64,000 nucleotides of DNA, from NCBI GenBank assembly GCA_022842305.1, contig JALHPY010000004.1, forward strand, positions 28,917 to 92,916, read 5' to 3'. This document shows, in pieces, positions 17,204 to 17,631 of the stretch. Position 1 is the first letter of the stretch; every line of letters begins with the position of its first letter. The notes beneath the pieces are model-generated. The model saw nothing but the letters and a program-made list of their open reading frames with translations. It searched no databases and was not told the origin of the DNA. A program made the position numbers and the translations under genes. The stretch comes from Rubrivivax sp. (GTDB lineage Bacteria; Pseudomonadota; Gammaproteobacteria; Burkholderiales; Burkholderiaceae_C).

Positions 17204-17631
17204 GCACGCGCCGCCACTGCCTGGCGCTCACGCTGCTGGCCTTGCCCTGGGCCGGCGCCCGCGCCGCCGCGCCCACGCTGGACGCCGCGGTGCGCGCCTG
17301 GGCCGGTGACGCCGTGCCGCGCGACGGCCGCGTGACGCTGGAGATCGCGCCGCTGGTGGAAAACGGCAACGCCGTGCCGGTGACGCTGCGCGTGGACAGC
17401 GCCATGACGGCGGCCGAGCACGTGCGCGAGATCGCCTTGTTCAACGAGAAGAACCCGCAGCGCGACGTGGCCCTGTTCCAGCTCAGCCCGGCCAGCGGAC
17501 GTGCCCAGGTGTCCACGCGCATCCGCCTGGCAACCAGCCAACGCCTGGTGGCGCTGGCGCGCTTCAACGACGGCAGCGTCTGGCAGCAGCAGGTGGACGT
17601 CATCGTCACCCTGGCCGCCTGCATCGAGTAA
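17200..17631 (+). CDS. soxY: SoxY-like sulfur carrier, variant C-terminus (AACIE)
   Basis: Tat-like N-terminus, APLVENGNAVPVTLRVDS; ends VTLAACIE rather than GGCGG. Confidence 0.82.
   Translation: MSTRRHCLALTLLALPWAGARAAAPTLDAAVRAWAGDAVPRDGRVTLEIAPLVENGNAVPVTLRVDSAMTAAEHVREIALFNEKNPQRDVALFQLSPASGRAQVSTRIRLATSQRLVALARFNDGSVWQQQVDVIVTLAACIE

What the first reader, a model, noticed from the sequence alone, without database searches (positions are those of the whole stretch)
17581..17631. SoxY with a non-canonical swinging arm (…VTLAACIE instead of …GGCGG)
Seen: translation ends V-T-L-A-A-C-I-E-stop. The Cys stays at the third-from-last position, as in GGCGG, but all four flanking glycines are replaced. 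Established: the GGCGG arm of SoxY is flexible and must enter the narrow SoxB/SoxXA/SoxCD active sites. Inference: this arm is probably incompatible with a canonical SoxB channel and fits a different partner, consistent with the missing soxB.
Basis: partly seen in the sequence, partly recalled or inferred. Interest (0 to 1): 0.8.

Follow-up and report, generated by a model that had tools for sequence, protein, structure and literature searches.

The report
SoxB-free Sox carrier with AACIE arm
The protein is a member of a named but untested branch of the bacterial sulfur-carrier protein SoxY; its altered tail always travels with a molybdenum enzyme instead of the usual sulfate-releasing enzyme SoxB, and many bacteria carry it with no SoxB at all, so it probably serves a different sulfur reaction.

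Summary
SoxY at 17200-17631 (+) ends VTLAACIE-stop. It is not an error: 240 of 240 listed homologues carry AAC. The arm is already named by NCBI (TIGR04487, 'SoxY-related AACIE arm protein'; 195.5 bits, cut-off 172), and the cluster was noted once, in Starkeya novella (PMC3797975): a second sox cluster with a xanthine-oxidase-family Mo enzyme, without soxB or soxCD, barely expressed on thiosulfate.

Of 107 AAC-type loci, 103 sit in one conserved operon iorAB-(fccAB)-soxXYZA, three are cut by contig ends, and one has its iorAB on another contig. None has soxB within the stretch read. All 16 GGCGG loci have soxB 1.4-2.9 kb away and no iorAB. With the arm left out of the alignment, AAC SoxY is still one clade. 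Of 43 AAC genomes, 18 have SoxB elsewhere (at least 16 beside another SoxY); 25 have none, several complete, and AAC SoxY is the only SoxY in 8 of 11 checked.

SoxXA keeps its catalytic ligands, so carrier loading looks intact. IorAB most likely replaces SoxB; the substrate is unknown. 'Third from last' is not conserved. The window's own genome does have SoxB.

The parts
14151..14651 (+). iorA-like small [2Fe-2S] subunit of a xanthine-oxidase-family Mo hydroxylase
   Evidence: Pfam Fer2 and Fer2_2 over cut-off; first gene of the conserved operon in related loci
14648..16816 (+). iorB-like molybdopterin-binding large subunit with Tat-type N-terminus (SRREFLG) and catalytic GVGE motif
   Evidence: Pfam MoCoBD_1/MoCoBD_2; closest solved relative 8gy3, large subunit of aldehyde dehydrogenase; GxGE in 85/86 and twin Arg in 81/86 family members
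16817..17203 (+). soxX, mono-haem cytochrome c
   Evidence: TIGR04485 70.3 bits, cut-off 61; CxxCH and Met90 conserved
17200..17631 (+). soxY of the AACIE-arm type
   Evidence: TIGR04487 195.5 bits, cut-off 172; TIGR04488 (true GGCGG SoxY) 81.4 bits, below cut-off 125; AF2 model matches SoxY 2OXG
17605..17631 (+). carrier arm VTLAACIE-stop; Cys141 at 17620-17622
   Evidence: read from sequence; Ala140 and Cys141 invariant in 96 AAC loci, GGC in 16 of 16 SoxB-linked loci
17643..17969 (+). soxZ
   Evidence: TIGR04490 77.6 bits, cut-off 76
17966..18712 (+). soxA, di-haem cytochrome c with conserved Cys209 haem ligand
   Evidence: TIGR04484 169.9 bits, cut-off 110; Cys209 in 98% and both CxxCH motifs in 99-100% of AAC clusters

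Best explanation
The AACIE arm marks the carrier subunit of a dedicated SoxB- and SoxCD-independent periplasmic module, iorAB-(fccAB)-soxXYZA. SoxXA oxidatively loads a sulfur compound onto Cys141 of SoxY, as in thiosulfate oxidation. The Tat-exported IorAB Mo hydroxylase, instead of SoxB, then acts on the loaded carrier or on the compound it carries or releases. In alphaproteobacteria FccAB (flavocytochrome c sulfide dehydrogenase) handles released or carrier-bound sulfide-level sulfur. The change from Gly to Ala, a hydrophobic residue and Glu refits the arm to that partner. Shown: a distinct clade, partner linkage, SoxB-free genomes, conserved catalytic residues. Inferred: direct contact between the arm and IorAB. 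Guessed: the substrate; an organic thiol or thiocarbonyl suits a carbon-hydroxylating Mo enzyme best. My step odds: dedicated SoxB-independent module 0.9; SoxXA loads SoxY Cys141 0.75; IorAB acts on the carrier-bound substrate 0.5; substrate is organic sulfur rather than thiosulfate 0.55.
For: AAC loci carry soxXYZA with iorAB in 103 of 107 cases, three of the rest being cut by contig ends and one split between contigs; SoxB 0/107 nearby. All 16 GGCGG loci have SoxB and no IorAB (Fisher 2e-20, or 4e-12 on genome-sample loci only; loci are related, so p is indicative). 21 of 22 AAC genomes in an alphaproteobacterial sample, and 4 Hyphomonadaceae, lack SoxB. None of the 20 SoxB-less AAC genomes searched has SoxC over cut-off. 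AAC SoxY is the only SoxY in 8 of 11 SoxB-less AAC genomes. SoxY, SoxZ, SoxA and SoxX of these clusters each form one side of a branch against SoxB-linked copies (SH-aLRT 97, 89, 88, 94). IorB-SoxY distance correlation r = 0.87. SoxA Cys209, all CxxCH motifs, SoxX Met90 and IorB GxGE are conserved. In S. novella the equivalent cluster is hardly expressed with thiosulfate (PMC3797975).
Against: One complete genome (G139, L151) keeps iorAB-soxX-soxA with soxYZ cleanly absent and no SoxY anywhere, so IorAB and SoxXA can persist without the carrier. Close IorAB relatives also stand alone (L152-L155). No substrate, adduct, complex or mutant has been examined. Flanking genes gave no consistent substrate clue.
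Confidence: 0.55

Rival explanations
1. SoxXA mainly serves IorAB as electron acceptor or as a TsdA-like thiol-coupling cytochrome, and SoxYZ is a peripheral add-on.
For: iorAB-soxXA without soxYZ in complete genome G139, whose SoxA is nearest to AAC-cluster SoxA. The closest solved IorB relative, 8gy3, is annotated as an aldehyde dehydrogenase large subunit; that such enzymes pair with cytochrome c subunits is my recollection.
Against: soxYZ is kept in every other IorAB-SoxXA locus read here. The arm Cys is invariant and SoxY co-varies with IorB more strongly than SoxX or SoxA do.
Confidence: 0.18
2. IorAB and SoxXYZA are co-regulated but work in sequence on free small molecules: IorAB produces or consumes the carbon part, SoxXYZ with FccAB handles the freed sulfur; the arm never meets IorAB.
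For: IorAB relatives occur without Sox genes (L152-L155). FccAB sits in the alphaproteobacterial operons.
Against: The arm sequence changes together with the partner set, as expected if the arm is read by the new partner.
Confidence: 0.2
3. Accessory loader for the ordinary Sox pathway: AACIE SoxYZ hands its sulfur to the SoxB encoded elsewhere in the genome.
For: The window's genome and 17 other AAC genomes do have SoxB.
Against: 25 AAC genomes have no SoxB, several of them complete; SoxB nearly always has another SoxY beside it.
Confidence: 0.05
4. A leftover sox duplicate of no function, as was suggested for the second cluster of Starkeya novella.
For: Low transcript and protein levels in S. 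novella on glucose, methanol and thiosulfate (PMC3797975).
Against: Operon order, catalytic residues and arm are conserved across alpha- and betaproteobacteria; sole SoxY in several genomes. The authors themselves allow other growth conditions.
Confidence: 0.02

Closest known systems
SoxY-related AACIE arm protein (NCBIfam TIGR04487, SoxY_para_1)
   Same: Whole protein over the curated cut-off, same arm
   Different: Nothing: the window protein is a member. The model is a name; no function is attached, and no paper in the open library names it.
Second sox cluster soxX2Y2Z2A2F2 plus XO-family Mo enzyme of Starkeya novella (PMC3797975)
   Same: soxXYZA with a xanthine-oxidase-family Mo enzyme, no soxB, no soxCD; four Ancylobacter species (the same lineage, from my knowledge) carry the AAC operon here
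   Different: S. novella also has the FccAB (SoxF2) genes, absent from the window cluster. The S. novella tail itself was not read here.
Canonical SoxYZ of thiosulfate oxidation (2OXG; SoxB-SoxYZ complex 4UWQ)
   Same: Fold (Foldseek E 3e-11 to 2OXG); conserved C-terminal Cys at the same distance from the VT of the last strand
   Different: GGCGG replaced by AACIE; no soxB or soxCD in the cluster; separate clade
SoxYZ fusions beside PQQ/methanol dehydrogenases (TIGR04557; clades 2 and 4 of PMC11237559)
   Same: Divergent carrier arm and a carbon-oxidising neighbour instead of SoxB
   Different: Fused SoxYZ, different dehydrogenase family; window SoxY scores 51.9 against a cut-off of 140. That survey discarded sequences lacking GGC, so the AAC class could not appear in it.

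Membership tests
TIGR04487 SoxY-related AACIE arm protein | curated score cut-off 172 bits | tested here: met
   195.5 bits
TIGR04487 SoxY-related AACIE arm protein | AAC-type C-terminal arm | tested here: met
   VTLAACIE-stop
Canonical thiosulfate SoxY (TIGR04488) | curated score cut-off 125 bits | tested here: not met
   81.4 bits
Canonical thiosulfate SoxY (TIGR04488) | GGCGG arm | tested here: not met
   AACIE; GGC in 16/16 SoxB-linked loci
Canonical Sox multienzyme system | soxXA and soxYZ present | tested here: met
Canonical Sox multienzyme system | soxB in the cluster | tested here: not met
   0 of 107 AAC loci; SoxB of this genome is on contig C9
Canonical Sox multienzyme system | thiosulfate conjugated to the SoxY Cys | not testable with these tools
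   needs biochemistry
SoxA cysteine-ligated cytochromes | active-site Cys haem ligand | tested here: met
   Cys209 aligned with the Cys of 16/16 SoxB-linked SoxA; 98% in AAC clusters
Xanthine-oxidase-family Mo hydroxylase (IorAB-like) | MoCoBD_1/2 plus 2Fe-2S domains and catalytic Glu (GxGE) | tested here: met
Isoquinoline 1-oxidoreductase in the strict sense | activity on isoquinoline | not testable with these tools
   name is by resemblance; closest solved structure is annotated as an aldehyde dehydrogenase subunit
Fused SoxYZ carriers (TIGR04557) | curated score cut-off 140 bits, fused Y and Z | tested here: not met
   51.9 bits, separate soxZ

The most novel reading that the evidence does not exclude
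A Sox pathway for organic sulfur: a xanthine-oxidase-family Mo hydroxylase has taken the places of SoxB and SoxCD and oxidises the carbon of a thiol or thiocarbonyl compound while it is tethered to SoxY, leaving sulfur on the carrier for FccAB or other enzymes. It would be a carrier-bound route in bacteria that cannot run the thiosulfate Sox cycle.
Probability: 0.3. Interest if true: 0.85.

Novelty: new member of a known kind. Interest (0 to 1): 0.55.

Why it matters
SoxYZ is usually read as a marker of thiosulfate oxidation. Here is a widespread clade of SoxYZ and SoxXA, often in genomes with no SoxB and no SoxCD, tied to a Mo enzyme of a family that hydroxylates carbon. If it works as proposed, genomes now scored as partial thiosulfate oxidisers run a different reaction. 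The arm-partner correlation also gives a clean system for asking what the GGCGG arm is for. Single-SoxY, SoxB-free bacteria such as Henriciella or Hyphomonas relatives make the question testable by one gene deletion.

Tried and rejected
Sequencing error or frameshift at the 3' end: rejected, tail conserved in 240/240 proteins and all loci read. Conserved third-from-last Cys: rejected, 2-7 residues follow the Cys. Window genome lacking SoxB: rejected. Several independent origins of the arm: an arm-trimmed tree needs one change. Flanking genes as substrate clue: two-component regulators (19-22 loci), ABC transporter ATPases (12) and XdhC/hydantoinase genes near some, nothing constant. Bradyrhizobium literature: soxY1 of the canonical locus is essential for thiosulfate oxidation and soxY2 is not (PMC5748708), but I could not tell whether soxY2 is AAC type. 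Papers for 'AACIE', TIGR04487 or sox with isoquinoline oxidoreductase: none relevant beyond S. novella. No structure of a SoxYZ complex could be modelled with the single-chain tool.

Full report
What is there. The window carries, on the + strand and closely packed, iorA-like (14151-14651), iorB-like (14648-16816), soxX (16817-17203), soxY (17200-17631), soxZ (17643-17969) and soxA (17966-18712). NCBIfam already has a model for this protein, TIGR04487 'SoxY-related AACIE arm protein', which it passes (195.5 bits, cut-off 172); it fails the model of true GGCGG SoxY (81.4 bits, cut-off 125). So the arm is known as an annotation. No open-access paper found here mentions it, and the SoxY family survey found here removed every sequence without a GGC motif (PMC11237559).

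Is it real. All 240 proteins listed in two homology searches end in AAC. In 96 aligned loci Ala140 and Cys141 are invariant, position 139 is Ala (93%), Ser or Pro, and 143 is Glu in 94%. Rare Gly-Ala-Cys arms occur in L184 and L194. Hyphomonadaceae end AAC-VVL, -IIG or -VIG. Two to seven residues follow the Cys, so 'third from last' is a property of this protein, not of the class. The AF2 model puts the last strand at 127-137 with a low-confidence tail after it, so the arm is still predicted loose; the change is in its side chains, not in its reach.

Tail type against partner. A genome-contig scan and two genome samples gave 107 AAC loci with context. IorB lies on the same strand upstream in 92 of 95 in the first set, the other three being cut by contig ends (L069, L083, L135), and in 11 of 12 in the second. 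The exception, L189 (G478), has its AAC-type IorB on another contig. Alphaproteobacterial operons usually insert a small cytochrome and an FccB flavoprotein between iorB and soxX. SoxB is within reach of none. For contrast, 16 GGCGG SoxY loci, mostly from the same or related genomes, all have SoxB 1.4-2.9 kb away and no IorAB.

Whole genomes. In the Pseudomonadota sample, 17 of 21 AAC genomes have SoxB elsewhere and 4 have none; names from a protein search identify the last four as Henriciella/Hyphomonas relatives. In the alphaproteobacterial sample, 21 of 22 AAC genomes have no SoxB over cut-off, including single-contig genomes G578 and G711; G715 has a distant SoxB-like match at 174 bits, far below the cut-off of 550. 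The 20 SoxB-less AAC genomes searched also lack SoxC over cut-off. In 8 of 11 SoxB-less AAC genomes searched, the AAC protein is the only SoxY. Where SoxB exists, another SoxY lies within 4 kb in at least 16 of 18 genomes, and 8 of these were read as GGCGG; G382 and G200 could not be checked from the truncated list.

Descent. With the arm cut off, AAC and GGC SoxY fall on two sides of one branch (SH-aLRT 97); so do SoxA (88), SoxZ (89) and SoxX (94) of the same clusters. Pairwise distances of IorB and SoxY correlate at 0.87 over 83 loci (shared species history contributes). The IorB of these operons is itself a distinct group: 54% identity or more to the window protein, against 46% or less for all other matches in 399 genomes. 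Five of its 26 members there are not beside soxY: four stand without sox genes (L152-L155), and one, G139, has iorAB-soxX-soxA with soxYZ missing and no SoxY anywhere in a one-contig genome, although two members of the same genus have the full operon.

How it probably works. SoxA of these operons keeps the Cys haem ligand and both haem motifs, SoxX its haem and Met ligand, so oxidative coupling of a sulfur compound to SoxY Cys141 should be possible. IorB has a Tat-type start and the catalytic GxGE, which puts it in the periplasm with SoxXYZA; its closest solved relative is annotated as an aldehyde dehydrogenase large subunit (8gy3). Replacing SoxB by a carbon-hydroxylating Mo enzyme suggests a substrate with carbon next to sulfur. 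That last step is inference; nothing here identifies the substrate.

Prior description. [quoted passage not shown] it was barely expressed on glucose, methanol or thiosulfate, and the authors suggested it may have no role or act under other conditions (PMC3797975). Four Ancylobacter species carry this operon with AAC arms here. What I add is the tail-partner rule, its single origin and the SoxB-free genomes.

Limits. The genome-contig loci were drawn by similarity to the AAC family, so they test the neighbourhood, not the tail frequency. Genome samples include incomplete MAGs. Loci are related, so p-values are indicative only. Locus stretches vary from about 2 to 20 kb. No physical interaction was tested.

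Noticed in passing
window 17621-17644: A 12-bp near-perfect tandem duplication (GCATCGAGTAAC / GCATCGAGTAAT) spans the soxY stop and the soxZ start; its second copy repeats the end of the arm after the stop codon.
   Followed up: partly
window 6457-10493 (-) and 10588-11900 (+): A PhsA/PsrA-like molybdoenzyme with Fe-S and NrfD subunits, divergent from a CsoR-type repressor and a TDT/SLAC1-family transporter: possibly another sulfur-compound system beside the sox cluster.
   Followed up: partly
window 11912-12775 (-): purU (formyltetrahydrofolate deformylase, over cut-off); by sequence a PurU-like gene also lies right beside the operon in L046 and L048. A C1 link is possible but unproven.
   Followed up: no
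L151 7309-10916: Complete genome G139: iorAB-soxX-soxA with soxYZ absent and no SoxY in the genome, while congeners have the full operon; a natural soxYZ deletion.
   Followed up: yes
L196, L197: Another SoxY type with tails IGGCST and IGGCAS in genomes without SoxB (G578, G663): a further non-canonical arm.
   Followed up: no
L001 (C164) and L004 (C104) of the window's genome: Two further SoxY-domain genes in long open frames (300 and 262 aa), so this genome holds four SoxY loci; possibly SoxYZ-fusion types.
   Followed up: no
L184 and L194, SoxY C-termini: Gly-Ala-Cys arms (VTVGACIVG, ITLGACLED) in iorAB-linked clusters, midway between GGC and AAC.
   Followed up: partly
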